Assembly (NCBI GenBank): GCA_020160935.1
Contig: JAIUPL010000009.1
Span: 124,001-188,000 of the forward strand
From: Bacteroidota bacterium
GTDB lineage: Bacteria; Bacteroidota; Bacteroidia; Chitinophagales; Saprospiraceae
Direction: 5' to 3'
Length of the DNA: 64,000 nucleotides
The notes below the pieces were generated by a model that did not search any database, was not told the DNA's origin, and was given only the letters and a program-made list of their open reading frames with translations. Made by a program: the position numbers and the translations under genes. Every line of letters begins with the position of its first letter. Within the stretch, counting starts at the first letter, position 1. Positions 1,288 through 61,456 of this stretch are shown here, piece after piece.

Positions 1288-3423
1288 ATGCCCAAATTTC
1301 GAATACTCTGCCTGGCCGGCATACTGCTGGTTCTGCCTTTTGTGGTGCACGCACAAAAGCCGGCTGATATTAAACGCAATGCCGAACGTGCCTACAACAA
1401 CGCTCACTGGCAGGAAGCCCAGCAACTGTTCAGTCAGTACCAATCGCTCAAGCCCGGCGAAACAGATGTGCTCACCAAACTCGGCATTTCCTATTACCAC
1501 CTGCACACCGCCGACAAGGCGCGGCAGTTGCTGGAATATGTAGCCACCCGTTATCCCGACAGCAAAGACCCCGATCTGTTTTTCTACCTGGCCCGTACCC
1601 TGCATGCACAAGCCGAATATGAAAAAGCCATAGGAGCCTACAAGGCATTTATGCGGGTAGCGCCTGCCAATCATCCTTTGCGCGCCGGAACCCCCGACAA
1701 CATCCGACGTTGCCTGAGCGGACTTACCATGGGCAGTAATGATGCGGTAGCGCTGGTAGAAAACCTCGGCAATCGGGTCAATTCCGCGGGCGACGAATTT
1801 GCGCCGCTGGTTTCCATCAACCACGCCGACCGTATGTATTACTCGGCCGCCAGAGAAGGCTGTGTAGGCGGCCGCCGCAACGATCAGGGTTACGAAGACG
1901 CTGAAAAAGGGCATTGGTGCAGTGATATTTTTGCTGCCCAATACCAAACCTCCGGCTGGGAAACCACCGGCAATATGGGAGGACTGCTCAATACTTCGCG
2001 TTTTGAAATCGGGCTTGGTTTTAATCAAACAGGCCAGGTGCTATACTTTTTTCGCGGTTTTACACCCTATGGCGGTGAAATTTATGCAGATACGGCTGCT
2101 GTAAAGGACGAATATGCCATTGAGCCACCCTTGTTCAAAAGTCCGATGAAACCCGAAGAAGGCGACGGCACACCTTATTTTATTGACAACAAGCACCTGC
2201 TTTTTTCGAGCCGACGCAGTGGCGGGCTGGGTGGCCTGGATCTGTGGCTGACAACCTGGATGGATAGCACCTGGAGTGCTCCAGTCAACCTGGGCCCCGC
2301 AGTAAATTCCGGGTACGATGAGGTAACGCCCTTCCTGGCACGCGACGGCCGTACCTTGTATTTCAGCAGCAACCGATCAGAAAGCATCGGCGGGCTGGAC
2401 GTGTATAAATCTGTATTCGACGAGGTGAAAAAAACGATGGGGCCTGCCGTCAATATGGGTACACCCGTCAATTCGCCCGGCAACGACGAGTCGTTCCGCC
2501 TGACAGCCGACGGCCGCTCCGCTTTTTTTGCCTCCGATCGTATCGACAGTTATGGCGAGCGCGATATTTATGTTGCTTACCTGAAAGAGGAAGCGCCCGA
2601 GCAATTGTCGGCTGCCGCGCCGATGCTGGTGGCGCCTCAAGATGCAGCGGCTTCCGAGCCTGTCGTAGAGCAAGCGCGTTTCAGTGTTTCGCCGCTTTTG
2701 TATGACAATGACAAAGACCTGCTTTCGACCGACAACCAGAAAATACTCGACACTATTGCCCAGATTGGAAGACAATTTCCACAAACTGTGCTGCTGGTAA
2801 CAGTGCATACCAATGAAACCGGCGCTTCCAAATTCGATCTTTATTACGGCATCAAACGCGCCGAAATCATCGGGAAGGCGCTTTCAGACAGGGGCATTCT
2901 ACCCGGTCGAATTGTGCTGCGTAGCGCCGGTGCAGCCTTCCCCATCGCCAAAAATGTGCTCGATGCAAGTCCTAACCCACTGGGTGCGCATTTCAACCGG
3001 CGGGTGGAATTCGGATTTGCCTTGCCTGCCGACCCGCTGCCATTCCAGTTCAGGCAGGAGCGGCCAGCCGTGTCCGAACTCATGTCGGTACCCGGCATAC
3101 AATACCTGGACAATTTCAACAGCGGATTGTCGTACCGGGTGGAGGTGGCTACCACGCGCCAGATTCTTGCCAATGACGCCCTGAGTATGTTCAACGACCT
3201 GATGATAGAGAGCCAGCCCGGGTCTGGCGCCTACAAATATTCTTCCGGGATGTTTGCACAGTACGACAAGGCGCAGCAATTGAAAAAAGACCTGATTCAA
3301 CAGGGATTTACCGAAGCAGTGGTGGCGCCGTTCCTCAATGGCATCCGGATTTCCAAGGCAGAAGCAGTAGGGTGGTTGAAAAAATTTCCTGACCTTACGG
3401 GCTATATTAGAGGTGAGAGGTGA
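1288..3423 (+). CDS. TPR / PD40 propeller / OmpA-like envelope protein
   Basis: A 711-residue exported protein. A signal peptide (MPKFRILCLAGILLVLPF, cleaved after HAQ) is followed by TPR-like helices (about 25-130), WD40-like PD40 propeller blades (about 175-435; SSRRSGG, SSNRSESIGG and ASDRIDSYGERD repeats), an OmpA-type peptidoglycan-binding domain (about 478-575, ending NRRVEFGF) and a C-terminal region (about 610-711) resembling a SPOR fold. The architecture recalls PorE and other T9SS or gliding accessory proteins that link the outer membrane to peptidoglycan. A role in T9SS is inferred from architecture only. The last residues, RGER, and the TGA stop are encoded by a GTGAGAG-type tandem repeat that begins inside the gene. 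Confidence 0.88.
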   Translation: MPKFRILCLAGILLVLPFVVHAQKPADIKRNAERAYNNAHWQEAQQLFSQYQSLKPGETDVLTKLGISYYHLHTADKARQLLEYVATRYPDSKDPDLFFYLARTLHAQAEYEKAIGAYKAFMRVAPANHPLRAGTPDNIRRCLSGLTMGSNDAVALVENLGNRVNSAGDEFAPLVSINHADRMYYSAAREGCVGGRRNDQGYEDAEKGHWCSDIFAAQYQTSGWETTGNMGGLLNTSRFEIGLGFNQTGQVLYFFRGFTPYGGEIYADTAAVKDEYAIEPPLFKSPMKPEEGDGTPYFIDNKHLLFSSRRSGGLGGLDLWLTTWMDSTWSAPVNLGPAVNSGYDEVTPFLARDGRTLYFSSNRSESIGGLDVYKSVFDEVKKTMGPAVNMGTPVNSPGNDESFRLTADGRSAFFASDRIDSYGERDIYVAYLKEEAPEQLSAAAPMLVAPQDAAASEPVVEQARFSVSPLLYDNDKDLLSTDNQKILDTIAQIGRQFPQTVLLVTVHTNETGASKFDLYYGIKRAEIIGKALSDRGILPGRIVLRSAGAAFPIAKNVLDASPNPLGAHFNRRVEFGFALPADPLPFQFRQERPAVSELMSVPGIQYLDNFNSGLSYRVEVATTRQILANDALSMFNDLMIESQPGSGAYKYSSGMFAQYDKAQQLKKDLIQQGFTEAVVAPFLNGIRISKAEAVGWLKKFPDLTGYIRGER

Positions 3424-3459
3424 GAGAGTGAGAAGTGAGAGAGTGAGAAGTGAGAGATG
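3410..3459. repeat. Tandem AGAGGTG / AGAGAGTG repeat array
   Basis: Six to seven imperfect 7- and 8-bp units (AGAGGTG, AGAGAGTG, AGAAGTG). They overlap the last codons and stop of the preceding gene and fill the spacer before the methyltransferase. The same family recurs at 39507-39560, 51551-51590 and 52895-52929, and in inverted sense at 19574-19608. Confidence 0.85.
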
Positions 3460-3496
3460 GTGGGGGATACCAAGTTAATCCTATAACAGCAGCAAA

Positions 3497-4066: not shown

Positions 4067-4097
4067 TTGCCACCGGCTTTTTATAAAAAATTACAAA

Positions 4098-8738: not shown

Positions 8739-8742
8739 GGCA

Positions 8743-11465: not shown

Positions 11466-12458
11466 ATGAAAAACGTCCTTTCCGCTATCCAGCCCACCGG
11501 CGACCTGCACCTCGGCAACTATTTTGGCGCCGTTCAGAACTGGGTTCGTCTGCAAGATTCGTATAAATGCACGTATGGTGTCGTCGATTACCATTCGATG
11601 ACCATGCCATACGACGCAGCGCAACTGCGGGAAAACACCTGGAAAATGGTGTTTTATCTGTTGGCATGCGGTATCAAGCCGGAGAACCTGTTTATTCAGA
11701 GCCTTGTGCCCGAGCATGTGGAACTGAACTGGATTCTGGGATGTGTTACTTCGTACGGCGAACTGACGCGCATGACGCAGTTCAAGGACAAGAGCGATCA
11801 GTTGCGGGAAAAAGACAAGGACGCTTTCGTCAGCCTCGGCCTGTTTGCCTATCCGGTGCTGCAGGCTGCTGATATCCTGATTTACCGGGCCGATTATGTG
11901 CCCGTGGGTAAAGACCAGGAACAGCACCTCGAACTGTCGCGAAATATCGCACAGCGCTTCAACAACCAGTTTGGCCAGGAATATTTTGTGCACCCGGAGC
12001 CTTTGTTTACCGAAACGCCGAAGATTCTTTCTCCGGCCGACCCCAACCGGAAAATGAGCAAAAGCCTGGGCGAAAAGCACTATATCAATCTTTTTGCCGA
12101 CGAAGACCGCGTGCGCAAACAAATCAAATCGGCTGTGACCGACACCGGCGATACACCTGCCGGAGAAATGAGCGCCGGGGTGAAAAACCTGTTTGAACTC
12201 CTGCGCGCCTGTGGAAATATGGATGCCCACAACAGCCTGATGGCCGACTACCAGGCCGGCGCACTGCGCTACAGCGCCCTGAAAGAAGCCGCCGCCGATA
12301 CGCTGGTAGCACTGATCAATCCGCTCCGCGAACGCCTGGCCGATTTGCAGGCCAATGAAAAGGCCATTCAGGAGCAAGTGCGCGCCAGCAGCGCCGCTAT
12401 TCGCCAGCGCGCCCAGCAAACGTTGGGGGAAGTGCGGGAAATTGTGGGACTGGTCTGA
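11466..12458 (+). CDS. trpS: Tryptophanyl-tRNA synthetase
   Basis: A 330-residue class I aminoacyl-tRNA synthetase that charges tRNA-Trp. The HIGH-type motif is HLGN (15-18) in IQPTGDLHLGNYFGA; KMSKS is at 196-200; QAADIL and VPVGKDQEQHLE are typical of TrpRS. Length is normal for bacteria. It is the second gene of the ridA-trpS pair. The 62-bp inverted repeat starts at its stop codon. Confidence 0.97.
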   Translation: MKNVLSAIQPTGDLHLGNYFGAVQNWVRLQDSYKCTYGVVDYHSMTMPYDAAQLRENTWKMVFYLLACGIKPENLFIQSLVPEHVELNWILGCVTSYGELTRMTQFKDKSDQLREKDKDAFVSLGLFAYPVLQAADILIYRADYVPVGKDQEQHLELSRNIAQRFNNQFGQEYFVHPEPLFTETPKILSPADPNRKMSKSLGEKHYINLFADEDRVRKQIKSAVTDTGDTPAGEMSAGVKNLFELLRACGNMDAHNSLMADYQAGALRYSALKEAAADTLVALINPLRERLADLQANEKAIQEQVRASSAAIRQRAQQTLGEVREIVGLV

Positions 12459-12459
12459 C

Positions 12460-12600
12460 AGTTATCAGTTATTGGTTATTAGTTATCAGGGTGATAGGGG
12501 GCCATCTGTACAAATATTTGGTATCGCTTATTGTGTAGCCAAATATTTGTACAGATGGCCCCCTATCACCCTGATAACTAATAACCAATAACTGATAACT
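12460..12600. repeat. Perfect 62-bp inverted repeat with GTTATCA heptamers
   Basis: Left arm 12460-12521 and right arm 12539-12600 are exact reverse complements around a 17-base loop. The outer half of each arm is four tandem heptamers (GTTATCA, GTTATTG, GTTATTA, GTTATCA); the inner half is unique sequence (GGGCCATCTGTACAAATATT-like). It begins two bases after the trpS stop and would form a very stable hairpin. A single-armed relative is at 19510-19537. Confidence 0.95.
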
Positions 12601-12644
12601 ATTTGCCAAAACCCGACAAACCCGCCGCTCGGCATAGGGGAATC

Positions 12645-15700: not shown

Positions 15701-17662
15701 GATATTCCAGCAGGTGCTATGGTTCACAACAATACGCTGAGCGTGTCGCAGGGCAGCACCGAAGTTATTACGACGGCTTATTTGCAGGTATACGCCAGCG
15801 GGCAGGCATCTCAACTGACTTACACCCTGTTGGAATTGCCGCTCCATGGCACATTGCTGTTGAATGGCAATCTGCTGGGTGCAGGCGCTACTTTCACGCA
15901 GGCCGACATCGACGCAGGCGCCTTGTCGTACACCCACAACGGCGATCAGAGCCTGACGGATAATTTCCATTTCGACGTGTATGATGCGCAGAATTTTTCG
16001 TGGCTGCACAATCAGGTTTTCAGCATTGTTATTTTGCAAAATGACCTGACAGCCTCCGCCACTGTAACACATGTCGTTTCCTGCTATGATGGAAATGACG
16101 GCGCCATTACAGTAGAAGCAAGCGGACTCGATGGCAATTATGAGTATGTTCTGAATAATGGCGATCCGCAAACTTCCAATGTTTTCAGTAACCTGGCGGC
16201 CGGATCTTACACCGTAGTAGTGACGGGGCAGTTTGGATTTAGCACAACAGTGGGCCCCTTGGTACTCTCTAACCCTGCACAACTTATTGCAGGCGCTACG
16301 GTAGATGCTGATCAGATTACTGCTTCCAGTACTGGCGGTACCGGACCATACACCTACCGACTCGACGAACAGAATTATCAGGCCTCGCCTGTTTTTGAAT
16401 CTGTACCCAATGGAATTCACGTAGTATCCGTACAGGATGCGAACGGCTGTGTGGCTTCCACGCAGGTAATTGTTGCTGTCAACTCCTTGCTAGCATTTAC
16501 GGAAGCGGCGCAAAATATCTCCTGTTTTGGAGGGGCCAATGGCGTTCTCGTTGTCACGGCAGCAGGCAGCACACCTCCATTCGAGTACAGTCTTAACGGG
16601 GCAGATTTTCAAACCTCCAATGTATTTACAGGCCTGGGTGCAGGTTTTTATACAGCGATTGTTCGCGATGCTAGCAGCATGGTCGTGTTTACCAATGAAG
16701 TAGAACTGACACAGCCCACTCAACTGACGCTCGAAGCGAACAACAACATCAATGACGTAGTGCTTACCCCTTCAGGCGGCACGCCTCCTTACACGCTGAC
16801 CATCAACGATGAGCCATCCGACGTTTTTGAATTTATCGATTTGGAAGAAGGTGAATACACCTTTGTTGTAACTGACGCCAATGGTTGTTCAGCCGGCGCA
16901 CAGGCCACCGCACTTGGTAACACCCTGGTCAATTTCTTCCAGGCAGTATCGGCAGTATCCTGTGCTGGCGACCAGGATGGGGTCATCGGACTTTGTATCG
17001 ACGGCGGCTACGGCCCGCTGACGGCTACGATTACTCCGGAAGCCGGCACTTTTGCCGGTAGCAGCAATGGTTCCTGTGCATTCCTGGCTTCTTTTTTCAA
17101 CCTGCCACCCGACACGTATACCATTACCATCACCGACTCGCTGGGTTTTAGCATAATAACGGGCGCCACCGTGACGGCCCCGGAACCACTGACGCTGGAA
17201 GTAACCCATCAGGCCGATACCCTCATTGCCCTCGCCAGTGGTGGTACATTCAGTTATGAATACAGCCTCGATGGCGAAAACTGGCAGTCGGAACAATACT
17301 TCCCGGGGCTGACAGAAGGATATTATACGGTGTTTGCGCGCGACATCAAACTTTGCAGCGACTCACTCACTTACTTCCTCAACCTGACCGGAACGGTCGA
17401 TCCTGCTACTGCCTGGGGTGTAAGCGTATCGCCCAATCCCGGCGCCGGCCTGTTCAACCTGCGCATGACCAACGCACCCGGCGATTTGTCGGGCGAGATA
17501 ACTGATATGACCGGCCGCAGTTTGCGCAACCTTGACTTCCATCCCGGACAAGGCGCCTTCCAAACCCAAATCGATCTGCAAAACTTGCCTCAAGGGATGT
17601 ATGTGCTGCGATTGACGGATGGGAAACAGACGGGAGTGCTGCGGCTGAGTGTGGTGAGATAG
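12716..17662 (+). CDS. Giant secreted metzincin (reprolysin-like) with P-domain, SprB repeats and T9SS type A sorting domain
   Basis: 1648 residues. A signal peptide (MSTRLTLLLCLWGCFGVLHAQ) is followed by a propeptide-like region and a catalytic metzincin domain with the complete zinc motif H335EMGH339QFGANH345 and the Met-turn STIMGYAG. Then come a fibronectin-III-like module (about 748-835), a proprotein-convertase P domain (about 840-992), a CSPG/cadherin-like repeat (about 1000-1100), several SprB-type repeats (VSCYDGNDGAI, ISCFGGANGV, VSCAGDQDGV; about 1115-1490) and a T9SS type A C-terminal domain (about 1568-1648, VSPNPGAGLFNL to the end). It is exported by Sec, then moved to the surface or medium by T9SS. 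A role in degrading external protein is likely. Its stop overlaps an AGTCCTG repeat. Confidence 0.93.
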   Translation: MSTRLTLLLCLWGCFGVLHAQSLWTDLTGHAPAISGKRYIIPQQYRTLHLEADGMQALLSTVSEQAPGVMPVTLALPMPDGSSKRFLIYETPLMAPELQARYPESRSYTGIGMDDPTASLKCDLTPWGFHAMVRSKQFSTVFIDPYAQGNRDYYISYYKKDLLTKGKNAPEFSCGIQSHNTAQPENENTPEFQGDCQLRRYRLALACTREYSAFHGDTKPLVMAAMVTSMNRVNGVYEDELAVTMQMVANNDTLIYLSTMTDPYSNNNGGAMLNQNRTTCNNRIGLNNYDIGHVFSTGGGGIAGLGVVCTSDKAQGVTGSGTPIGDAFDIDYVAHEMGHQFGANHTQNNDCNSEAVASMEPGSASTIMGYAGICAPDVQLHSDDYFHAISLQEIGLFITTGAGNTCPVKTITGNSTPTVNGGPNFTIPKSTPFALTATGSDANGDPLTYCWEQMDPQFATMPPVSTSATGPLFRSYTPVASPTRYFPNLPDLINNVNSDWEELPGVARTMNFRVTARDNNPAGGCTEEDDVLVTVAGNAGPFVVTAPNTNVLWYVGESKAVTWSVANTNIAPVNATQVRISLSTDGGYTYPYILANSVPNNGSANVTVPNQLSNKCRIKVEGVGNIFFDISNQNFRIELPPFPSFTLVNSVSDLTICAGDTASFTLQTQSIAGFTGNINLTTNGNPLGSTVAVSAATIAAGQGANVQIYGITPLMSGNYNLVISGTADTLLVRDTVALTILPGSPALSTPLSPADGATGLGTGVTLQWTEVNFASTYTVQVSLNADFSTTVYSQTLSGTSADISGLQPGKVYYWRVRAANFCGVAAYSETFAFQVQNLQCNQTFTSTDVPQVIDDASVNTALSILDVPVTAVIGSAQVNIQISHTWVGDLEARLATPWGADIVLFDQPGVPGSQYGCGNDNINVTFSDAATNNAAALEGQCNTNPALSGTFQPIMPLSALNGQDAGGEWQLYVDDNVGEDGGSIDQWSLTFCFQSDIPAGAMVHNNTLSVSQGSTEVITTAYLQVYASGQASQLTYTLLELPLHGTLLLNGNLLGAGATFTQADIDAGALSYTHNGDQSLTDNFHFDVYDAQNFSWLHNQVFSIVILQNDLTASATVTHVVSCYDGNDGAITVEASGLDGNYEYVLNNGDPQTSNVFSNLAAGSYTVVVTGQFGFSTTVGPLVLSNPAQLIAGATVDADQITASSTGGTGPYTYRLDEQNYQASPVFESVPNGIHVVSVQDANGCVASTQVIVAVNSLLAFTEAAQNISCFGGANGVLVVTAAGSTPPFEYSLNGADFQTSNVFTGLGAGFYTAIVRDASSMVVFTNEVELTQPTQLTLEANNNINDVVLTPSGGTPPYTLTINDEPSDVFEFIDLEEGEYTFVVTDANGCSAGAQATALGNTLVNFFQAVSAVSCAGDQDGVIGLCIDGGYGPLTATITPEAGTFAGSSNGSCAFLASFFNLPPDTYTITITDSLGFSIITGATVTAPEPLTLEVTHQADTLIALASGGTFSYEYSLDGENWQSEQYFPGLTEGYYTVFARDIKLCSDSLTYFLNLTGTVDPATAWGVSVSPNPGAGLFNLRMTNAPGDLSGEITDMTGRSLRNLDFHPGQGAFQTQIDLQNLPQGMYVLRLTDGKQTGVLRLSVVR

Positions 17663-17751
17663 TCCTGAGTCGTAAGTCCTGAGTCGTAAGTCCTGAGTCG
17701 CTTATCAATTTTGGTAAAAGACTTAGGACTCAGGACTCAGGACTTACGACT
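17661..17751. repeat. AGTCCTG/AGTCGTA heptamer hairpin
   Basis: The left side (17661-17700) is nearly six heptamers alternating AGTCCTG and AGTCGTA; the right side (17720-17751) is the inverted form. The first unit starts on the last two bases of the metzincin stop codon. It fills the spacer up to the dnaX promoter. Close relatives are at 61296-61456. Confidence 0.92.
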
Positions 17752-17759
17752 TTATTACT

Positions 17760-19509: not shown

Positions 19510-19537
19510 GTTATCAGTTATCTGTTATTGGTTATCA
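19510..19537. repeat. GTTATCA heptamer array
   Basis: Four tandem heptamers (GTTATCA, GTTATCT, GTTATTG, GTTATCA) followed by GGGTGG, as in the hairpin at 12460-12600. It begins just after the dnaX stop. Confidence 0.88.
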
Positions 19538-19573
19538 GGGTGGTAATGATACATCTCTGATTACGCTGACTTC

Positions 19574-19608
19574 TCACTCTCTCACCCTCTCACTCTCTCA
19601 CCCTCTAT
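19574..19608. repeat. CTCACTCT/CTCACCCT octamer array
   Basis: Four 8-bp units alternating CTCACTCT and CTCACCCT, the reverse complement of the GTGAGAG family. It ends within six bases of the Crp/Fnr ATG, so the whole dnaX-crp spacer is largely two unrelated tandem repeats. Confidence 0.88.
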
Positions 19609-24690: not shown

Positions 24691-24921
24691 TTCGGCTTCG
24701 CCTCACGGGGGACTTGGGATTTTGCGGATCAGGCGGATAAAGCGGATTTTTTGTGGCCTGTCGGCCACTTATGATATATTTTTTTCCGATTTCAGATATC
24801 TCTTTATTTATCACCGTCGAAGGCGGAAAAAATCAAAAAAGTGGCCGACAGGCCACAAAAAATCCGCCTGATCCGCCTGATCCGCAAAATCCCAAGTCCC
24901 CCTATTCGGGAGGCGAAGCCG
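24691..24921. repeat. Long inverted repeat with GCGGATnnn 9-mers
   Basis: Arms 24691-24770 and 24839-24921 are nearly perfect reverse complements around a 68-bp centre. Each arm holds 9-bp tandem units (GCGGATCAG, GCGGATAAA, GCGGATTTT) and an inner GTGGCCTGTCGGCCAC palindrome. It fills the space between two convergent genes and may serve as a bidirectional terminator. Confidence 0.9.
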
Positions 24922-27255: not shown

Positions 27256-27266
27256 GGGAAAAGAAA

Positions 27267-27315
27267 GGGGCAAGGGGCAAGATGCAAAAGGCAAGGAGCA
27301 AGGAGCAAGAGGCAA
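27267..27315. repeat. RRRGCAA heptamer array
   Basis: Seven tandem heptamers of the form GGGGCAA, GATGCAA, AAGGCAA, GGAGCAA or GAGGCAA. It starts 11 bp after the stop of the T9SS cargo gene. Confidence 0.9.
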
Positions 27316-27423
27316 GGATGCCCTTCGACGCAAAATGTCCTGCTTGTTAAAAATCTAACTGTTACTGATACATCCCGAATTTTGGTGAAAGCCAGGATTC
27401 GGGATTGTTTTTTTGGGTGGTTT

Positions 27424-27690
27424 CCGTAGAGTGGTTTCCCGCAGATTTCCCCGCGGATCTCGCAGAACGTAGAGTAGTTTCCCGCAGATTGCGCAGATTT
27501 ACCCGCAGAACTCGCAGAATGTAGAGTACACATTTTGATCGCTTTGAAGAAAATAGGTGTACTCTACATTCTGCGAGTTCTGCGGGTAAATCTGCGCAAT
27601 CTGCGGGAAACTACTCTACGTTCTGCGAGATCCGCGGGGAAATCTGCGCAATCTGCGGGAAACTACTCTACGAAAACCACTCTACGGAAA
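27424..27690. repeat. Very long inverted repeat of GCAGAT/CGGAT units upstream of uvrA
   Basis: The innermost arms, 27441-27531 and 27557-27647, are perfect reverse complements; pairing continues outward with small offsets. The arms repeat 9-12-bp units around GCGGATCTC, GCAGATTGC and GCAGAACTC, with GTAGAGTA spacers. The tip TGTAGAGTACACATTT (27520-27535) is shared with the hairpin at 61349-61364. The 27256-27805 spacer contains this element, the heptamer array at 27267 and the uvrA promoter, and no gene. Confidence 0.9.
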
Positions 27691-27730
27691 ATACTCTACG
27701 GGAAATATGCCACATCTTACACCACACTTT

Positions 27731-36640: not shown

Positions 36641-36675
36641 GACTGTTGACTGACGACCGTTGACTGACGACTGTC
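36641..36675. repeat. GACTGAC-type heptamer array
   Basis: Five tandem heptamers (GACTGTT, GACTGAC, GACCGTT, GACTGAC, GACTGTC), ending just before the stop codon of the minus-strand VWA-like gene at 36678. Confidence 0.88.
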
Positions 36676-38960: not shown

Positions 38961-39530
38961 ATGCCTATGCTTTCCGAACCTGTCATTCATATTCGCGACC
39001 TCTCTTTCCAGCCTTTGTTCTCGGAACAGGAAGTACAACAACGGGTACAGGAACTCGGCGCTGCACTTACACAAAGCCATGCTCGCAAAAACCCGTTGTT
39101 TATCAGCATCCTCAGTGGCGCTTTTGTGTTTGCCTCCGATCTGATTCGGGCTTTTGACGCCGACTGTGAAATTGGATTTGTAAAACTGTCGTCCTACCAG
39201 GGTACCCGCTCTTCGGGCGATGTGCAAACCGTGATGGGGCTGGAAAAAGACCTCATGGGCCGCCACCTCATCGTGGTGGAAGACATCGTCGATACGGGCC
39301 GGACGTTGCATTTTTTCCTCCATCACCTGGCACAGCAGCAACCCGCCTCCGTCACTACCGTAGCATTTCTGCGCAAACCCGAAGCCGTCGAATTTCAGGT
39401 GCCGGTGGAACATGTTGGTTTCGATATCGAAAATAAATTTGTGGTGGGCTACGGACTGGATTATGACGGGCTGGGCAGGAACATTCCGGGGGTGTACCAG
39501 TTGATAGAGAGTGAGAGAGTGAGAGGGTGA
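38961..39530 (+). CDS. hpt: Hypoxanthine phosphoribosyltransferase
   Basis: 189 residues; a purine-salvage enzyme transferring phosphoribose from PRPP to hypoxanthine or guanine; cytosolic. The PRPP loop VVEDIVDTGRTL, the SILSGAFVFASDL segment and FVVGYGLDYDGLGRNIPGV are diagnostic. The ATG at 38961 (or 38967) is preferred to 38910 because a promoter box lies between them. The natural end of the family is close to GVYQL; the last residues, ESERVRG, and the stop are encoded by GAGAGTGA repeats. Confidence 0.94.
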   Translation: MPMLSEPVIHIRDLSFQPLFSEQEVQQRVQELGAALTQSHARKNPLFISILSGAFVFASDLIRAFDADCEIGFVKLSSYQGTRSSGDVQTVMGLEKDLMGRHLIVVEDIVDTGRTLHFFLHHLAQQQPASVTTVAFLRKPEAVEFQVPVEHVGFDIENKFVVGYGLDYDGLGRNIPGVYQLIESERVRG

Positions 39531-39560
39531 GAGAGTGAGAGGTGAGAGGTGAGAGAGGGG
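39507..39560. repeat. GAGAGTGA / GAGGTGA tandem array
   Basis: Four 8-bp units (GAGAGTGA, GAGGGTGA) followed by 7-bp units (GAGGTGA). It covers the last eight codons of hpt and runs into the spacer before the macrodomain gene. Confidence 0.9.
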
Positions 39561-41657: not shown

Positions 41658-41690
41658 AGTGATGAGTTGATGAGGTTGGGGGGATAAAGT

Positions 41691-41836
41691 TGATAAGTGT
41701 TGATGAGTGTTGATGAGTGTTGATGAGTGTTGATGAGGGTTGATATTCATCGGCTCGGGTAAGAGAATTTTTTACTTCATCGAGCCGATTAATATCAACC
41801 CTCATCAACCTTATCAACCCTCATCAACACTTAATA
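41691..41836. repeat. TGATGAGTGT decamer array and inverted repeat
   Basis: Five tandem 10-bp units (TGATAAGTGT, three TGATGAGTGT, TGATGAGGGT; 41691-41740). An inverted repeat joins 41729-41757 with 41781-41809 (GTTGATGAGGGTTGATATT and CGGCTCG, one gap). It occupies the gap between the aminotransferase start and the exopolysaccharide operon's end. Confidence 0.88.
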
Positions 41837-42753: not shown

Positions 42754-44289
42754 TCAGAATTGGAAGTAAATGAATGCATTGGCGCCAAAACTGCCAAAAA
42801 AAGCCAGCACCCAAAGCAGCACGGAAAAGAGTATCAGCCGCAGGGCGGGTTGTTCTACCTGTCGGACATTCCAGCGCATTCGTGTGTTTGAAATTTCAAC
42901 AAACAACAAAGCGCCTATCAGCAAAAAGCCCTTGATTACCTGGAATTTATTGATCACAGCACTGAAGGAAAATCCTTCCAGGCTAGCAATACCGCTCAGC
43001 ACTTTCCCGGCGGTAGCGAAACTGTCGCCACCCGCGAGCCCGATGCTGCCGCTCCGGAAAAATACCCAGGCCACCAGCGTAAGTACATATACCGTAAAAA
43101 TGGAAACAGCGTCGTCGGCCAGGCGTGGCAGCCGGATGCTGCGGGCCAGGCTGCGCCAGCGCGGACCCACGATGCGCTGCAACACCAGGTACATACCATG
43201 CAAAAATCCCCAGAAAACGAACGCCCAGTTGGCGCCGTGCCACAAGCCGCCCAGCAACATGGTAAGCATGTTGTTTTTGTAGGTCGACAGTTTGCCGTTT
43301 CTATTGCCGCCGAGCGGAATGTACAGGTAATCGCGCAGCCAACTCGACAGGGAAATGTGCCAGCGCGTCCAGAATTCAGAAAAACTTTTGGAAAAATAGG
43401 GCGTGCGAAAATTTTCCGGAAAGGTATAGCCCATCATCCGCGCCAATCCGATAGCGATGTCCGAATATCCGGAAAAATCGCAGTAAATCTGAAAGGAATA
43501 AAACACGACGCCGATGAGCAGGTGCATGGAGCCGAATGTTTCCGGCGCTGCAAAACACTGATCCACAAAAGGTGCAATGCTGTCGGCAATGGCTATTTTT
43601 TTGAAAAAACCCCACAATACCCTGCCCATGCCGCTGTTCCAGCGATTCCAGTCGAAACGTTTATCTTCGCTCATCTGGTAGAGGAAATCGGCTGCCCGCA
43701 CGATTGGGCCGGCCACCAATTGGGGAAACAGCGCAATAAAAGTGGCAAATTTCAGCAGCGACGGCTCCCAGGGCAATTCCCGCCGATACACGTCGATGGT
43801 GTACGACATGGACTGGAAAGTGTAAAAAGAAATGCCCACCGGCAGGATGATGTGCAGGGTGGTCCAGGAAGGCGTTATGCCCATTTCCCGAATCATTGCT
43901 GCCAGGTTGTCGGCAAAAAAACCGAAGTATTTAAAAAATCCCAGAAACCCGAGGTTCATCGCCATACTGAATACCAGAATGGTGCGACGTTGTAGTTGCA
44001 GGCCATGCACCCACCTTGTCAGGCGACCAAAAAATTGCAATACCAGGCTGCCATTTTCACAGCGTTCGCGGGTTTCTTCCGGCGCATCGTTGTACGAAAT
44101 CCAGAGTCCGAACCACCAATCCATCACGGTTGAAAAAACAATCAGCGACAAAAAACGCCAGTCCCACCATCCGTAAAAAATATAACTCGCCACCAGACAA
44201 ACCCAGGTGCGCATGCGGCCTTTCGTTCCAAAATACAGCGGAAAGAACAGCAGGATAAAAATCAGGAATGTGAGACTGTTAAAAACCAA
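42754..44289 (-). CDS. MBOAT family O-acyltransferase (AlgI/DltB-like)
   Basis: 511 residues, about 10-12 membrane helices. It carries FFPQLVAGPIVRA, YCDFSGYSDIAIGLA, NFRTPYFSKSFSEFWTRWHISLS and the invariant active-site His351 in GLWHGANW, with a second His364 in FLHGMYL. The start is TTG at 44289, as MVFNSLTFLIF is the usual N terminus of the family; no ATG is available. It overlaps the end of the upstream SGNH gene by 11 bp, implying translational coupling. It probably moves acyl groups across the inner membrane for polysaccharide modification. Confidence 0.92.
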   Translation of the reverse strand: MVFNSLTFLIFILLFFPLYFGTKGRMRTWVCLVASYIFYGWWDWRFLSLIVFSTVMDWWFGLWISYNDAPEETRERCENGSLVLQFFGRLTRWVHGLQLQRRTILVFSMAMNLGFLGFFKYFGFFADNLAAMIREMGITPSWTTLHIILPVGISFYTFQSMSYTIDVYRRELPWEPSLLKFATFIALFPQLVAGPIVRAADFLYQMSEDKRFDWNRWNSGMGRVLWGFFKKIAIADSIAPFVDQCFAAPETFGSMHLLIGVVFYSFQIYCDFSGYSDIAIGLARMMGYTFPENFRTPYFSKSFSEFWTRWHISLSSWLRDYLYIPLGGNRNGKLSTYKNNMLTMLLGGLWHGANWAFVFWGFLHGMYLVLQRIVGPRWRSLARSIRLPRLADDAVSIFTVYVLTLVAWVFFRSGSIGLAGGDSFATAGKVLSGIASLEGFSFSAVINKFQVIKGFLLIGALLFVEISNTRMRWNVRQVEQPALRLILFSVLLWVLAFFGSFGANAFIYFQF

Positions 44290-45010
44290 GGGAATGATGA
44301 ATGATGAAGGATGAATGATGAATCATTTCCATTTTCCATACCGAATACCCCACTCCGTTCAAATGAATACCGTCTTCGGTAAAACGGGGATCGAGGTTTC
44401 CATTGGCATCCAAAAGGCTGGAAAAAATATCGATGTAAGGCAATGCATAGTCACGGGCCAGGGTGGCAATCCCGGCGTTGAGCGCGCGGATGTTGTCGTT
44501 GGTGGTTCCGATTTTTTTGATCTGGTTGTTTACAGGTAGTACGCTCTGCAAAAAGAGTTCCGAATTGGGGGATTTACTCCGAATTTGTGCTACGATTTCC
44601 CGGTAAACCGAAAGAATCGCTTCCGGCTTTTTCTGAAAAATGAGGTCGTTGATGCCAATCATCAGGTAAATCCGGCGGGGTTTGTGGCGCAGTACTTCCT
44701 CCAGCCGATCCAGTACACCCTGCACATGATCGCCCACAATACCCCGGTTAAGAATGCTGAAAGAATCGGGGCGCAGCAACTCCTGCCACTCGCATTGTTC
44801 CGTGTGGCTGTCGCCCAGAAAAATAACGGCACCGGGACTTGGCTGCATCATTTCAAACAATTGTGTGCGGTGGTGATAAAGCCCCGCTTCGTCGTGTTGC
44901 AGCCGGAACATGGCGTACGTCCACCCGCCGAGCCGGTCGACCACCAGCAACAAACCTGCGGCCAGCAGCAAATTGAGCAAAAGTGAAATGACCAGTATGG
45001 ATTTTCGCAT
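44279..45010 (-). CDS. GDSL/SGNH hydrolase with signal anchor
   Basis: 243 residues; N-terminal signal anchor (about 5-27). Block I is GDSHTE, block II Gly is in NRGIVGD, block III is GINDL and block V is DGIHLNGVGY: a complete Ser-Gly-Asn-His set. A periplasmic esterase or acyl-transfer role on the polysaccharide is inferred from context. After GYSVWKMEM the protein ends in IHHSSFIIHHSLGF, which is the translation of a GAATGAT heptamer array, so the native C terminus seems to have been replaced by repeat. Confidence 0.87.
   Translation of the reverse strand: MRKSILVISLLLNLLLAAGLLLVVDRLGGWTYAMFRLQHDEAGLYHHRTQLFEMMQPSPGAVIFLGDSHTEQCEWQELLRPDSFSILNRGIVGDHVQGVLDRLEEVLRHKPRRIYLMIGINDLIFQKKPEAILSVYREIVAQIRSKSPNSELFLQSVLPVNNQIKKIGTTNDNIRALNAGIATLARDYALPYIDIFSSLLDANGNLDPRFTEDGIHLNGVGYSVWKMEMIHHSSFIIHHSLGF
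44292..44326. repeat. GAATGAT heptamer array inside the SGNH gene's 3' end
   Basis: Five exact-length heptamers (GAATGAT twice, GAAGGAT, GAATGAT, GAATCAT). It lies wholly within coding sequence, just before the overlap with the MBOAT start. Confidence 0.9.
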
Positions 45011-50356: not shown

Positions 50357-51547
50357 ATGCGCACCGAACTACTCGAAGCCCTGTTTTGGATCGGCACGTT
50401 TGTCGTTTTTTATGCCTATCTCGGCTACGGGCTGCTACTATTTGCCTGCGTATGGGTAAAAAGGCATTTTTCCAAGCGCGCTCCTGAGACGAATATTTTG
50501 CCTCCGGTCACTTTTATCGTCTGTGCATACAACGAACAGGACTGGATGGCACAAAAAATTGCCAACTCGATTGCGCTGGATTACCCGCCCGATCTGATCC
50601 GCTTTTTATTTGTGACCGATGGCTCGAACGACGGTACCGATACGATTGTACAGACATACCCCTACCCGCCTGGAATTCAATGGCAATTATTACACCAATC
50701 TGAACGCAGGGGCAAAATTGCGGCATTCCAGCGCGCCATGTTGTCGGTACAAACGCCTATAGTCGTCAGCACCGACGCCAATACGGTGGTGAACCGGGAG
50801 GCTATTCGGCGAATTGTCGGGCATTTTGCCGATCCGCAGGTAGGCGCTGTGGCAGGGGAAAAACGAATTTCCATGGCAGAACGCGACGATGCCAGCAGCG
50901 CCGGGGAAGGTATTTACTGGAAATATGAGAGCACCCTGAAAAAATGGGATGCAGAACTGTGGTCGGTGATCGGCGCGGCAGGCGAACTGTTTGCATTCCG
51001 CACGGAAGTGTATGAGCACGTTCCGGCAGATACGATTGTCGAGGATTTTTACCTCACCATGCGCATTGCACAAAAGGGGTATCGGGTGCAGTACGAGCCC
51101 GGCGCCTGGGCGGCCGAAAGTTCGTCGGTATCTGTTTCAGAGGAATTGAAGCGCAAGGTGCGCATTGCTGCAGGTGGTTTGCAGGCGGTGGCCCGGCTGG
51201 CGCCGCTGCTCAATATTTTCCGGTACGGAGTGTTGTCATTTCAGTATATCTCGCATCGGGTGTTGCGCTGGACGCTGGCGCCGCTCCTGTTGCCGGTGTT
51301 GCTGCTGACGAATGTTGCATTGGCAGCCTCCGGAAGTGCCCTGTATCAGGTTTTGCTGCTTTGTCAGGTAATTTTTTACTTGGCGGCCCTGGCAGGCTAT
51401 GTGCTCGAACGGCGCAAAATGAAGGTCAAGGCGTTTTTTATTCCCTATTACTTCTGTGTGATGAATTATTCCATGTATGCCGGTTTTTTTCGGATTATTC
51501 GTGGCAACCAGACTGTATTATGGGAAAAAGCGCAACGAAGCGTCTAA
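50357..51547 (+). CDS. Membrane glycosyltransferase, family 2
   Basis: 396 residues. An N-terminal membrane helix (ALFWIGTFVVFYAYLGYGLLLF) precedes the GT-A core: VTFIVCAYNEQ, FVTDGSNDGT, STDANTVV (metal site), VAGEKRI and EDFYLTMRI with an RKVR segment, then three C-terminal helices. It resembles processive polysaccharide synthases. ATG at 50357 is chosen because the membrane helix follows; the 29-residue extension to 50270 covers the promoter box at 50311-50318. It is transcribed away from the exopolysaccharide operon and its end overlaps the minus-strand mvaA end by 30 bp. Confidence 0.88.
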   Translation: MRTELLEALFWIGTFVVFYAYLGYGLLLFACVWVKRHFSKRAPETNILPPVTFIVCAYNEQDWMAQKIANSIALDYPPDLIRFLFVTDGSNDGTDTIVQTYPYPPGIQWQLLHQSERRGKIAAFQRAMLSVQTPIVVSTDANTVVNREAIRRIVGHFADPQVGAVAGEKRISMAERDDASSAGEGIYWKYESTLKKWDAELWSVIGAAGELFAFRTEVYEHVPADTIVEDFYLTMRIAQKGYRVQYEPGAWAAESSSVSVSEELKRKVRIAAGGLQAVARLAPLLNIFRYGVLSFQYISHRVLRWTLAPLLLPVLLLTNVALAASGSALYQVLLLCQVIFYLAALAGYVLERRKMKVKAFFIPYYFCVMNYSMYAGFFRIIRGNQTVLWEKAQRSV

Positions 51548-52891
51548 CCTCCTCTCACCTCTCGCCTCTCGCCTCTCACCTCTCGCCTCTAAATACGCTC
51601 TTACTCCGCTAAAACTCACCGTTTGCGCCTGAAAATAATGTTGCGCTGCGGCCGCTTCTTCCGGCGTGGCGCCCAGGTGATTCAAAATATTGGTGAGGTG
51701 CATTTTCATATGTCCTTGCTGGATACCGGTTGTGATGAGGGAACGTACGGCTGCAAAATTTTGAGCCAGTCCCACGGCTGCCGTAATACACATCAGATCG
51801 CGGGCCGATGGCTGGCCCAGTATTTCCAGCGAACGTTTGGCCAGCGGGTGCAGGGCCGTCAGTCCACCAACAGTACCCATCGCGAGTGGCACCTCCAGTT
51901 CGAAGCGAAACATACCGTCTTGCACGGTGCAGCGACTCAGGCTGCGATATTGTCCGTCGCGTGCGGCATAAGTGTGTCCGCAGGCTTCGATAGCCCGGAA
52001 GTCGTTGCCCGTTGCCAGTACCACGGCATCTATACCATTGTAAATGCCTTTGTTGTGGGTGGTAGCCCGGTAAGGGTCTATTTGTGCAATGCGCACCGCC
52101 ATGGCAAAACGCCGGGCCAGGCTTTCAGCATCCATACCCTGTATGCGGGCCAGGTCGGCAAACGACGAAATGGGGCATTCCACCCAGGCGCGCACCAGGC
52201 AATCGGGGGTGTAGTTGGAAAGAATCGACATGACGACTTCCACATCGCGCTCCGTATCGCTGAGGCCTTGCGTATCTGTAAAAAATGCCTCCAGGGTCTC
52301 TGCAAAACGTTCCAGCACCGAATTGACAAAATTGGCGCCCATGCTGTCGCAGGTTTCGAATGACACGCGCAGTTGGTAGTAGTTCGGTTCTTCAGGAAAA
52401 TCAATCAATTCCACGCCCAGAATACCGCCTCCGCGTTTTTCCATGTTGGCCACCAGATCCGTACTGGAATCCAGCAAACGGGCGCGCAAAGCCGGGAAAA
52501 TTTCGCGCAGGCGTTCCGGTTCCCCAAACCATTGGAAATGCACCTGGCCGAGTTTCACCGTCCCGATCACTTCTGCGTGAAAACCGCCGCGTTCCTGCCA
52601 GAATTTGGCTGCACTGCTGGCGGCAGCCACCACACTGCTCTCTTCAATCACCATCGGCACGGCATACACTTTCCCGTTGATCAGGAAATTGGGTGCAATG
52701 CTGTAAGGCAGCACATAGTTGGCTATTGCATTTTCAGTAAACCCGTCTACCACGCGTTGTACGCCGTCGTCGGGATGCTGCCAGGTAGCCAGGTCGGCCG
52801 AGAATGCCTGCGGGTCGGTACTGAAATGTTCAGCCAGCCAGTTTATTTTTTCCTGTTTATCGAGTTTGGAAAAGCCGCTGATAAGACGCAT
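51518..52891 (-). CDS. mvaA: Hydroxymethylglutaryl-CoA reductase, class II
   Basis: 457 residues; reduces HMG-CoA to mevalonate, usually with NADH in this class. ETCDSMGANFVNSV, the catalytic Lys281 in THNKGIYNGIDAV, PLAMGTVGGLTALHP and the degradative-type (class II) order are clear. ATG at 52891 begins MRLISGFSKLDKQEK, the family N terminus; the longer frame reads through a repeat array and the neighbouring gene. The C-terminal tail EARGERREARGERR is translated from CCTCTCG heptamers. It lies directly after fni, so both work in isoprenoid precursor synthesis. Confidence 0.93.
   Translation of the reverse strand: MRLISGFSKLDKQEKINWLAEHFSTDPQAFSADLATWQHPDDGVQRVVDGFTENAIANYVLPYSIAPNFLINGKVYAVPMVIEESSVVAAASSAAKFWQERGGFHAEVIGTVKLGQVHFQWFGEPERLREIFPALRARLLDSSTDLVANMEKRGGGILGVELIDFPEEPNYYQLRVSFETCDSMGANFVNSVLERFAETLEAFFTDTQGLSDTERDVEVVMSILSNYTPDCLVRAWVECPISSFADLARIQGMDAESLARRFAMAVRIAQIDPYRATTHNKGIYNGIDAVVLATGNDFRAIEACGHTYAARDGQYRSLSRCTVQDGMFRFELEVPLAMGTVGGLTALHPLAKRSLEILGQPSARDLMCITAAVGLAQNFAAVRSLITTGIQQGHMKMHLTNILNHLGATPEEAAAAQHYFQAQTVSFSGVRAYLEARGERREARGERRLDASLRFFP
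51551..51590. repeat. CCTCTCA/CCTCTCG heptamer array
   Basis: Five exact heptamers plus a partial one (CCTCTCA, CCTCTCG twice, CCTCTCA, CCTCTCG). It begins four bases after the GT2 stop on the plus strand and encodes the tail of mvaA on the minus strand. Confidence 0.93.
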
Positions 52892-52894: not shown

Positions 52895-52929
52895 AGAGGT
52901 GAGAGGTGAGAGGTGAGAAGTGAGAGGGG
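52895..52929. repeat. AGAGGTG heptamer array filling the fni-mvaA spacer
   Basis: Exactly five heptamers (AGAGGTG three times, AGAAGTG, AGAGGGG). The array occupies the spacer between the fni stop (52930) and the mvaA ATG (52891) almost to the base. Confidence 0.93.
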
Positions 52930-57814: not shown

Positions 57815-57959
57815 GTAACACGGATTACGCGGATATTAAGGCGGATTTTCACGGATTGGATGGGTGGTTGGGGAACTTGAATTATTACCAAAGCCCCATT
57901 ACCACCCATCCAATCCGTGAAAATCCGCCTTAATATCCGCGCAATCCGTGTTTCGTTAC
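57815..57959. repeat. Hairpin filling the gap between two convergent stops
   Basis: Left arm 57815-57868 and right arm 57901-57959 are nearly perfect reverse complements (GTAACACGGATT outer end, ACCCATCC inner end; a few offsets). It starts immediately after the bshA TAA, and its right end carries the TAA of the TonB receptor gene (57956-57958). Units of CGGATT with 9-13-bp spacing resemble the element at 27424-27690. It probably ends transcription both ways. Confidence 0.92.
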
Positions 57960-60251: not shown

Positions 60252-60373
60252 AAACTTTGACAAAGCACACAGGCAACCCAGCCAACTTTTGGCCACTCAT
60301 TTGGTTTGTCTTTCTTTACTTACAAAACCGGGTATCGGAGCAGTTCGGGCATTCGGCTAACAAATTACTTGAT

Positions 60374-61303
60374 ATGAAACAAATATGGTTTTGGCTGCTG
60401 GCATTCGTCGTGGCACTGGGCAGCTGCAAATCGGGTGGCAAGGTGGCGTATGCTCCTGAAAAGATCGTTCCGACGGAAAAGTCTGTTTTCTGGAAAATAA
60501 GCGGCAACGGCCTGAAAAAACCTTCCTACCTCTACGGCACCATTCACCTTATCCCAAAAGAGGGTTTCCAATTGCCTGCCGCTGTCACCAACGCCATGAA
60601 CGACAGCAAGCGCGTGGCTTTCGAGATCGATATGAAGGAAATGACCAATATCCGCACGCAAATGAGCCTGATTACCAAGTCGTTTATGTCGGGCGGCAAA
60701 ACGCTCAAAGACCTGCTCTCGCCGGAAGATTATGCGCTCGTAAGAACAAAAATGGAAGAAAAAGGACTGCCGGCGGGCATGTTCGAACGCATGAAACCCA
60801 TGTTCCTGAGTACGCTCGTCACCAACGACGATGATGGCCCCAGCACCGCTACCGGCAACATGACTTCGGTGGAAATGGAACTGTATCGCCTGTCGCGCAA
60901 ACGCAAACTCGAATCGGCTGGACTCGAAACAGCCGCCTATCAAATGTCCATTTTCGATAGCATCCCTTATGAGGCCCAGGCCAAAATGCTGGTTGATGGG
61001 CTTCGTACCACCGGTACATCTGGCGATGGAAAAAGCGAACTGGACAATATGATTCAATTGTATCGCGATCAGGATATTACCGCCATGCAGGCCATGATAT
61101 CCGATACGCAGTACGGCATGAACAATTATGAAGAAATTCTGCTCAACAAACGCAATCGCAACTGGATTCCGGTCATGGGGCGTATGATGCGCGAAAAACC
61201 TACCATTTTCGCTGTTGGCGCCGGCCACCTCGGCGGCCCGGGCGGAGTAGTGGCGCTGTTGAGGAAGGAGGGGTATCGGGTGGAAGTGCTTTCTAAGTCC
61301 TGA
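60374..61303 (+). CDS. TraB/GumN family lipoprotein
   Basis: 309 residues. Lipobox LGSC (Cys18) in MKQIWFWLLAFVVALGSC. The TraB/GumN (Tiki-like) fold is indicated by LKKPSYLYGTIHLIPKE, a central SAGLETAAYQMSIFDS (ExxxxQ-type position) and the C-terminal RNRNWIPVM with FAVGAGHLGGPGGVVALLRKEGY; the paired GTIH and GAGHL residues are those proposed to bind metal in Tiki-type proteases. Activity is unproven. Its stop TGA and the last codons lie in the first AGTCCTG unit of a repeat array. Confidence 0.88.
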   Translation: MKQIWFWLLAFVVALGSCKSGGKVAYAPEKIVPTEKSVFWKISGNGLKKPSYLYGTIHLIPKEGFQLPAAVTNAMNDSKRVAFEIDMKEMTNIRTQMSLITKSFMSGGKTLKDLLSPEDYALVRTKMEEKGLPAGMFERMKPMFLSTLVTNDDDGPSTATGNMTSVEMELYRLSRKRKLESAGLETAAYQMSIFDSIPYEAQAKMLVDGLRTTGTSGDGKSELDNMIQLYRDQDITAMQAMISDTQYGMNNYEEILLNKRNRNWIPVMGRMMREKPTIFAVGAGHLGGPGGVVALLRKEGYRVEVLSKS

Positions 61304-61456
61304 GTCGTAAGTCCTGAGTCCTGAGTCGTAAGTCCTGAGTCCTGAGTCTGTAGAGTACACATTTATACCCTTGGCATTCACATTAACAAATACCAAGGGT
61401 ATAAATGTGTACTCTACAGACTCAGGACTCAGGACTTACGACTCAGGACTTACAAG
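61296..61456. repeat. AGTCCTG/AGTCGTA heptamer hairpin
   Basis: Eight tandem heptamers on the left (61296-61350). The arms 61317-61374 and 61393-61450 are perfect reverse complements (58 bp) around an 18-base loop. The inner arm contains TGTAGAGTACACATTT (61349-61364), also found at 27520-27535. It sits between convergent genes, and the first unit provides the TraB/GumN stop codon. Confidence 0.95.

What the first reader, a model, noticed from the sequence alone, without database searches (positions are those of the whole stretch)
3410..61456. A set of unrelated 7-bp tandem repeats placed at gene boundaries
Arrays with different sequences share a 7-bp period and an intergenic or gene-end position: AGAGGTG (3410, 39507, 51551, 52895), GTTATCA (12461, 19510), AGTCCTG/AGTCGTA (17661, 61296), RRRGCAA (27267), GACTGAC (36641) and GAATGAT (44292). 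Arrays with 8- (19574), 9- (24720) and 10-bp (41691) units also occur. Unrelated sequences with one period imply a mechanism that makes or keeps heptamer repeats rather than spread of one element. STRR heptamers are known from cyanobacteria; I am not aware of an equivalent description for Saprospiria.
Basis: partly seen in the sequence, partly recalled or inferred. Interest (0 to 1): 0.85.

Follow-up and report, generated by a model that had tools for sequence, protein, structure and literature searches.

The report
Heptamer-armed palindromes behind stop codons
This bacterium carries many short DNA repeats of seven letters at the ends of its genes; most are the two mirror-image arms of hairpin-shaped elements whose repeated word differs between related species at the same place, which suggests a DNA-copying process that keeps making and re-matching them.

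Summary
The arrays are real and far above chance. In 464 kb of the genome, 30 of 78 strong arrays have period 7 (47 of 78 have 7, 14 or 21); two order-4 shuffles gave none. A word runs forward, then a hairpin core, then its reverse complement (52 forward-reverse pairs, 0 reverse-forward), often within a few bases of a stop codon. Palindromes form multi-copy families; one core motif carries three arm words. At orthologous gene ends congeners carry different words, at two sites four in four species. Arms co-vary without the G-U excess RNA selection should leave. Best reading: dispersed palindromic elements whose arms lengthen by slippage and are kept matched by fold-back template switching in DNA. 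No mobilising enzyme was found. Close precedents exist: heptamers in inverted pairs (Xanthomonas), the same polarity (Xanthomonas, Nostoc), and the GTTATCA word itself (Beggiatoaceae, Cyanobacteria, five Bacteroidetes). New here: many words at once, one core with several arms, and word change at fixed sites.

The parts
3409..3457 (+). AGAGGTG/AGAGAGTG array, single; the stop codon of gene 1288-3423 lies inside it
12459..12601 (.). GTTATCA palindrome: arms 12460-12521 and 12539-12600, 62 nt, 100% complementary, 17 nt between the arms; follows the stop of 11466-12458
   Evidence: ortholog with double-sided changes in G016
17661..17752 (.). AGTCCTG/AGTCGTA palindrome (arrays 17661-17700 and 17720-17752), overlapping the stop of 12764-17662
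19510..19606 (.). Mixed pair: GTTATCA forward array (19510-19538) behind a stop, then TCTCACCC reverse-type array (19572-19606) 5 nt before a start codon; same mix in G028 and G016
24707..24902 (.). Palindrome with 9-mer GCGGAT-type arms, 76-nt arms, 91% complementary; the orthologous gap in G016 is about 5 nt
27265..27318 (+). RRRGCAA array, single, 10 nt behind the stop of 26578-27255
27425..27707 (.). CGCAGA-family palindrome (27440-27536/27552-27648, 97 nt, 98% complementary) with the inner core GTAGAGTACAC
36641..36671 (.). GACCGTTGACTGAC 14-mer array 7 nt from the 3' end of the minus-strand gene 36678-38726
39506..39557 (+). AGAGAGTG/AGAGGTG array overlapping the end of 38967-39530
41689..41833 (.). 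GTTGATGAG-type (9/10-mer) palindrome, arrays 41689-41744 and 41793-41833
44292..44323 (+). GAATGAT array 3 nt before the start codon of the minus-strand gene 42754-44289, inside the last codons of 44279-44980; the same gene boundary holds a GCGGAT palindrome in G028 and a GAATGAT palindrome in G016
51551..51590 (-). AGAGGTG/AGAGGCG array (forward on the minus strand), at the end of the minus-strand gene 51518-52891, convergent with 50357-51547
52895..52927 (+). AGAGGTG array filling the gap between two minus-strand genes, 4 nt from a start and 3 nt from a stop: an exception to the rule at 3' ends, but in register with the rule for starts
57817..57952 (.). ACGGATT-family palindrome between convergent genes, 52-nt arms, 98% complementary
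61293..61453 (.). AGTCCTG/AGTCGTA palindrome with core TGTAGAGTACAC between convergent genes; about 135 bp of it recur at 35 places in G028

Best explanation
The arrays are arms of a set of dispersed palindromic elements, here called heptad-armed palindromes. Each has a hairpin core flanked by a short tandem array of a 7-10 nt word on the 5' side and its reverse complement on the 3' side; unpaired arrays look like elements that have lost or changed one arm. Shown by sequence: pairing, fixed polarity, multi-copy cores, position at stop codons, orthologous gaps of about 5-21 nt where relatives have no element, different words at one site in different species, and arms that co-vary without a G-U bias. 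Inferred: (1) elements enter or are copied into gene gaps as units, mostly right behind stop codons, where they do least harm and can supply a new stop; (2) arms lengthen by slippage, mostly in 7-nt steps; (3) when the strand folds back during replication, template switching copies one arm onto the other, so that changes and new words are mirrored; (4) the trans-acting enzyme, if any, is unknown.
For: Same-word neighbours: forward-reverse 52, reverse-forward 0, reverse-reverse 1; forward word near 3' ends in 79 of 87, reverse near 5' ends in 38 of 38. 96 of 120 arrays outside genes here, and 61 of 81 in G028, have a partner or hairpin. 93 of 108 hairpins fall in 12 clusters by single linkage. 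The core CGTAGAGTACAC (as a regular expression) sits inside 13 palindromes with AGTC arms, 9 with CGCAGA arms and 4 with GTGAGA arms; the same expression hit shuffled sequence twice. Behind stops: 22 of 46 co-directional gaps with >=60 nt left have the element within 10 nt of the stop, against 5.6 expected if placed evenly with 40 nt before the start barred. Orthologous gaps without element: C14:116392, 131 nt here against 20 and 12 nt in G006 and G031; window 24688, 250 nt against about 5 nt in G016. Different words at one site. Arms within an element 94-98% identical while elements of a family differ by 17-51%. At eight same-word orthologous hairpins, 49 pairs changed on both sides with Watson-Crick pairing kept against 20 on one side. 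Sense-strand mismatches in co-directional hairpins: G-U 50, A-C 64.
Against: No transposition was seen, and no target-site duplication could be read at 75-81% flank identity. No enzyme was found. The eight hairpins were picked from 21 comparisons; same-word or near-same-word comparisons left out include C14:118398 (3 double, 22 single), C14:108670 against G006 (5, 19) and G031 (1, 18), and window 17662 against G016 (2, 13), where the register is unsure; one left out agrees (C14:108670 against G016: 10, 2). For the AGTC family the other arm of the same element was the closest sequence in only 10 of 22. Hairpin detection itself favours intact palindromes. Words at one site are <=2 of 7 letters apart in 8 of 20 pairs, against 8.5% of random heptamers, so some 'replacements' may be concerted drift of one array (low C content also brings words closer). 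In other Bacteroidota the polarity of GTTATCA was weak: near 3' ends 8 forward and 4 reverse, near 5' ends 5 reverse and 1 forward, own genome included.
Confidence: 0.53

Rival explanations
1. The hairpins are selected as RNA structures at 3' ends (terminators or protection of transcript ends); any word will do, so words drift while pairing is kept.
For: Elements occupy 28 of 61 convergent gaps, lie at 3' ends, and pairing persists while sequence changes.
Against: No G-U excess on the transcribed strand (50 G-U, 64 A-C; 5 and 6 among the one-sided changes at the eight hairpins chosen). No Rfam family at gathering score in the window. Orthologous gaps without any element are common. Of 120 arrays outside genes, 24 have no partner arm.
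Confidence: 0.2
2. Ordinary MITEs or REPINs moved by a known transposase such as a RAYT; the heptamers are incidental expansions of the inverted repeats.
For: Multi-copy palindromes with recurring ends; BrickBuilt in Porphyromonas is a MITE with a tandem repeat inside (abstract of PMC4596501).
Against: Only two Y1_Tnp matches in the genome, and the hairpins beside them are of other kinds. One core with three arm words, and different words at one site, are not what copying of fixed ends predicts. Other transposase families were not surveyed.
Confidence: 0.17
3. Purely local mutation: slippage and quasi-palindrome correction build each element in place and drift its word, no dispersal.
For: Words differ between species at one site and are closer than random in part; one arm can expand alone, as at the G028 ortholog of C14:177380.
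Against: Shared cores at many sites with one polarity; elements present here against 12-21 nt gaps in relatives.
Confidence: 0.08
4. Annotation artefact: words containing TGA end any reading frame they enter, so arrays look as if placed at stop codons.
For: Several words (AGAGGTG, AGTCCTG, GAATGAT) carry a stop in the sense direction; some stops lie inside arrays.
Against: Words without a stop in their main sense form (GTTATCA, RRRGCAA, GTGTTTTG, CGCAGA, ACGGATT; some variants such as GTTATTA do make TAG) show the same rule: 29 forward and 1 reverse near 3' ends, 13 reverse and 0 forward near 5' ends (sums). Palindrome polarity does not depend on gene calls.
Confidence: 0.02

Closest known systems
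G-rich heptamer repeats of Xanthomonas (GGGAATC) and Nostoc (GGGGAYT), Rehm et al. 2015, PMC4692102 (sections 10, 14, 15, 16 read; other passages by search)
   Different: One G-quadruplex-forming word type studied per organism; here 11 words were scored in one lineage, most without G runs, with recurring cores, one core with several arms, and different words at one orthologous site
TAACTGA direct repeats, MacGregor 2015, PMC4679880 (abstract and sections 9, 10, 24 read)
   Same: Same heptamer on the other strand as our GTTATCA; intergenic; patchy across Beggiatoaceae, Cyanobacteria and five Bacteroidetes; its orientation before start codons agrees with the rule here
   Different: Reported mainly before start codons and as one word; one indirect repeat in the main genome; no palindromic elements described in what I read
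STRR heptamers of cyanobacteria (recalled; one search shows a passage on three tandem heptanucleotides in Calothrix)
   Same: Short tandem heptamers between genes
   Different: Their sequences were not compared here
BrickBuilt MITE of Porphyromonas gingivalis, PMC4596501 (abstract read)
   Same: A Bacteroidota repeat element combining inverted ends and a tandem array, between genes
   Different: 23-nt unit, array inside the element, 49-591 nt from coding sequences, one family of 19 copies
REPINs, PMC3116915 (passages read)
   Same: Dispersed inverted pairs that fold into hairpins
   Different: Linked to RAYT genes; no tandem heptamer arms in the passages seen. The two Y1_Tnp matches here lie beside other hairpins
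Template switching that maintains hairpins, PMC8794818 (abstract and start of introduction read)
   Same: Predicts mirrored, multi-base changes in both arms
   Different: Studied in RNA genes, not in dispersed repeats

Membership tests
Bacterial heptamer simple sequence repeats | Excess of 7-nt tandem units between genes | tested here: met
   30 of 78 arrays, none in shuffles; 55 of 120 outside genes, 1 of 14 deep inside
Xanthomonas/Nostoc G-heptamer repeats | Inverted pairs close to stop codons with the word on the coding strand downstream | tested here: met
Xanthomonas/Nostoc G-heptamer repeats | Runs of three or more G giving quadruplexes | tested here: not met
   By inspection of the units: most words (AGAGGTG, GTTATCA, AGTCCTG, GAATGAT) lack such runs
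TAACTGA repeats | The heptamer TAACTGA in tandem | tested here: met
   GTTATCA arrays at 12459 and 19510; 10 matches of three copies in the genome with one mismatch allowed, 0 for the reversed control
TAACTGA repeats | Located just before start codons | tested here: inconclusive
   In own and G028, 9 reverse arrays near starts, 13 arrays near stops
MITE | Inverted terminal repeats and multiple copies | tested here: met
MITE | Target-site duplication | tested here: inconclusive
   Flanks of occupied and empty sites are 75-81% identical, too far apart to read short duplications
MITE | Mobilised by a transposase with matching ends | not tested
   No survey of transposase families except Y1_Tnp
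REPIN | Same palindrome flanks a RAYT gene | tested here: not met
   Two Y1_Tnp matches carry other hairpins; whether they are RAYTs proper was not tested
STRR of cyanobacteria | The published STRR unit sequences | not tested
   Sequences not looked up

The most novel reading that the evidence does not exclude
A cross-phylum class of self-propagating palindromes in which one hairpin core can be re-dressed with interchangeable heptamer arms made by fold-back DNA synthesis. The same word in the same orientation behind stop codons in Acidobacteria, Chloroflexi, Cyanobacteria and Bacteroidota would then be horizontally shared or set by a common copying constraint, with gene ends as the niche.
Probability: 0.27. 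Interest if true: 0.9.

Novelty: new variant of a known kind. Interest (0 to 1): 0.7.

Why it matters
Heptamer repeats have been noted in bacteria for decades without an accepted origin (the age is recalled). A genome with many words at once, sister species with other words at the same sites, and arms whose mutations are mirrored turns the question of how they arise into one that can be measured: insertion, slippage and template switching leave different footprints. It also warns that paired changes in such hairpins are not by themselves evidence of a functional RNA.

Tried and rejected
BLAST of two palindromes against plasmids gave no match. Rfam gave none at gathering score. Y1_Tnp was followed as a candidate enzyme and dropped. 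A general rule that the 5' arm is G-rich holds only loosely: 57 to 23 in own and G028 hairpins with arrays, and the CGCAGA family breaks it. Stop codons in all three frames as the purpose of the words was rejected because several words have none in their main sense form. The wide spread of the AGTC word (103 stretches, the scan having stopped at its limit; 80 were listed and examined) is not proof of horizontal transfer: any tandem heptamer will arise somewhere in 84,980 genomes, most foreign hits are pure AGTCCTG arrays, and the exact core GTAGAGTACAC was found only in loci of one Saprospiraceae MAG. GTTATCA outside the genus was weak for polarity. A co-occupancy table was made, but sites empty in every species were not counted by species, so no test is claimed. 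The expression for the CGCAGA family returned no rows. Words at one site were first called unrelated; a check found them partly closer than chance, and the wording and odds were mended.
Full report
OBSERVATION. The genome (5.84 Mb, 51 contigs; window = C26:124001-188000) was sampled at 464 kb: the window, 300 kb of C14 and 100 kb of C17. With score >=16 there are 78 arrays: 30 of period 7, 6 of 14, 11 of 21, and 5, 4, 5 of periods 8, 9, 10; two order-4 Markov shuffles gave none at any period. With score >=12 there are 134 arrays, 14 deep inside genes; of 120 outside, 55 have period 7, and since 56 in all do, one lies inside a gene. Genes were called with a script of mine trained on long ORFs, not with a standard caller.

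PAIRING AND POLARITY. Inverted repeats of 16 nt or more abound (38 pairs in the window, many overlapping), and many arrays are their arms: of arrays outside genes, 96 of 120 here and 61 of 81 in G028 lie in a hairpin or have a mirror partner within about 200 nt; of those of period 7, 40 of 55 and 26 of 39. In about 700 kb of this genome and G028, arrays were assigned to 11 words, each given a 'forward' sense from the cases seen, that is, from part of the same data. Neighbouring arrays of one word are forward then reverse in 52 cases, reverse then forward in 0, reverse-reverse in 1; mixed-word pairs are 1 forward-reverse and 2 reverse-reverse. Within 40 nt of a 3' end the word is forward in 79 and reverse in 8; near a 5' end reverse in 38, forward in 0; 38 arrays were further away (23 forward, 15 reverse on the plus strand) and 64 could not be assigned. 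Because the sense was labelled from the data, consistency within words is the real test: AGTCCTG 25 of 25, GTTATCA 21 of 22, AGAGGTG 26 of 30, GTGTTTTG 9 of 9, GTTGATGAG 8 of 8, AGTTATG 8 of 8, GGGCAA 7 of 7, GTGAGTG 6 of 8, ACGGATT 3 of 3, GAATGAT 2 of 3, CGCAGA 2 of 2. The window array at 52895 breaks the rule at a 3' end (3 nt) but is 4 nt from a start, where it obeys it.

POSITION. Arrays or hairpins occupy 28 of 61 convergent, 53 of 223 co-directional and 11 of 60 divergent gaps of this genome. In convergent gaps what is left besides the element is 6 nt (median), close to the 8-nt median of empty convergent gaps, as expected if elements are added to tight gaps; in G028, with 22 convergent gaps (16 occupied), the figures are -2 and 112 nt, which does not fit so simply. 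In co-directional gaps of own and G028 with at least 60 nt left, 22 of 46 elements lie within 10 nt of the stop; even placement would give 3.3, or 5.6 if the 40 nt before the start are barred. Selection against harm to promoters could add to this.

FAMILIES AND CORES. 108 hairpins of own and G028 fall into 12 single-linkage clusters of 2-18 members (93 hairpins) and 15 singletons; the largest cluster joins two word families. About 135 bases of the window element at 61317-61451 recur at 35 places in G028 at 79-91% identity (counted, which scored only part of its candidates). The inner motif [CT]GTAG[AC]GT..AC was matched on both strands behind AGTC words 27 times with a partner and 4 without, CGCAGA words 19 and 1, GTGAGA words 7 and 4, and other sequence 7 times, against 2 in shuffled sequence; each intact element counts twice there, and counted once the elements are 13, 9 and 4. 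At C14:177380 the G028 ortholog has GTGAGTA arms around a core whose left half differs by 1 of 25 bases from that of the G028 AGTTATG element at the C14:113964 ortholog, so arms can change round a core.

TURNOVER. 51 gene boundaries had at least one ortholog among the stretches held of G028, G016, G006, G031 and G009; 16 had no array or hairpin in any species. Reading that table, I count 12 sites occupied in this genome and in at least one of G016, G006 and G031 (a thirteenth, C14:167378, lies inside a gene end here and was not counted). Five keep one word in all (C14:108670, 112908; window 12458, 19502, 52891); six show different words (C14:108066, 111993, 113964, 165829, 177380; window 44279, where G028 differs); one is unclear (window 17662, AGTCCTG against AGTCCGA types). 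C14:165829 has GTGAGTA, AGAGGTG, GTTTATGG and GTTATTCG types in four species; C14:177380 has AGTTATG, GTGAGTA, ACGGATT and GAATGAG types in four. These words were assigned by eye. They are not wholly unrelated: after best rotation 8 of 20 word pairs at the six sites are <=2 of 7 letters apart, against 8.5% of random heptamers, and 12 of 20 are 3-4 apart; low C content explains part of this, concerted drift of an array may explain some. Sites without element in a relative: C14:116392 (131 nt here; 20 and 12 nt in G006 and G031), window 24688 (250 nt; about 5 nt in G016), C14:163186 (154 nt; no gap in G028). Between this genome and its nearest relative G028, 28 of 30 sites in the table agree in being occupied or not (all-empty sites left out).

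ARMS CO-VARY, BUT NOT LIKE RNA. Within elements arms are 94-98% identical on average while elements of one family are 49-83% identical; the other arm is the closest sequence in 10 of 22 (AGTC), 12 of 14 (GTTATC), 5 of 5 and 2 of 2. Between species, eight same-word hairpins chosen from 21 comparisons (seven with G028, one with G016) show 49 pairs changed on both sides with pairing kept, 20 changed on one side, 5 changed on both without pairing; the same-word comparisons left out, with alignment identity below 0.7, mostly go the other way and are listed under evidence against. If RNA pairing were selected, G-U should exceed A-C on the transcribed strand. In 71 co-directional hairpins of all stretches loaded (3,399 pairs) it does not: 50 G-U, 64 A-C, 66 other. 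That fits matching at the DNA level, as in template switching (PMC8794818, abstract read), or recent origin of the elements.

DISTRIBUTION. The AGAGGTG pattern is in this genome (241 matches, 2 for the reversed control) and in G028 (989), G031 (181), G006 (103), G016 (90) and G015 (2), and in none of the other 54 genomes of that call. In the stretches sampled, G009, G022 and G005 have period-7 arrays with other words, while G007, G008, G033 and G035 had none of period 7, 14 or 21 and G012 one of period 14. GTTATCA arrays are in 15 of 296 Bacteroidota genomes, this one included; the reversed control is in 3. The AGTC pattern is in at least 103 stretches of a genome collection; 80 were listed. 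Of these, 69 loci from 40 genomes (labels from my reading of titles) remain outside the one Saprospiraceae MAG. With ORFs called crudely, the word near 3' ends is forward in 18 genomes and reverse in 2; near 5' ends reverse in 6 and forward in 5; where the stop lies outside the array, 15 arrays are forward and 1 reverse; forward-reverse pairs occur in 6 genomes, reverse-forward in none. So the arrangement is not confined to Saprospiraceae, but the 5' rule is weak there and shared descent of the words is not shown.

COMPARISON. Rehm et al. [quoted passage not shown] MacGregor 2015 (PMC4679880, abstract and sections 9, 10, 24 read) describes TAACTGA. What I did not see in these is many words in one genome, a shared core with several arms, change of word at fixed sites, or the G-U test.

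Noticed in passing
L075 (G000:C42) around 1224-1370: A Y1_Tnp gene lies by its own hairpin (GGGCGTTGCCC type) and a 12-mer array, neither related to the heptamer words.
   Followed up: partly
G000 C14:163208-163322, 203965-204076, 206414-206498: Palindromes of a CTTTGTGTCC-type word, the first present here and absent from the G028 ortholog; CGTAGAGTGTAC follows related CACAAAGGACAC arms on their outer side, the reverse of its place in the AGTC family.
   Followed up: no
window 19510-19606: A pair with different words on its two sides (GTTATCA behind the stop, TCTCACC before the start), kept in three species.
   Followed up: partly
window 12764-17662: A 1632-aa protein with M12B-like metallopeptidase, SprB repeat, P-proprotein and Por secretion tail domains; its stop codon touches an AGTC palindrome.
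   Followed up: no
window 51518-51590: Two convergent genes overlap by 30 nt, and the AGAGGTG/AGAGGCG array lies within the called end of the minus-strand one, so it may encode part of its C-terminus.
   Followed up: no
L175, L182, L204 (Acidobacteria and Chloroflexi MAGs): Mixed AGTCCTG/AGTGCTG palindromes with the same polarity outside Bacteroidota.
   Followed up: partly
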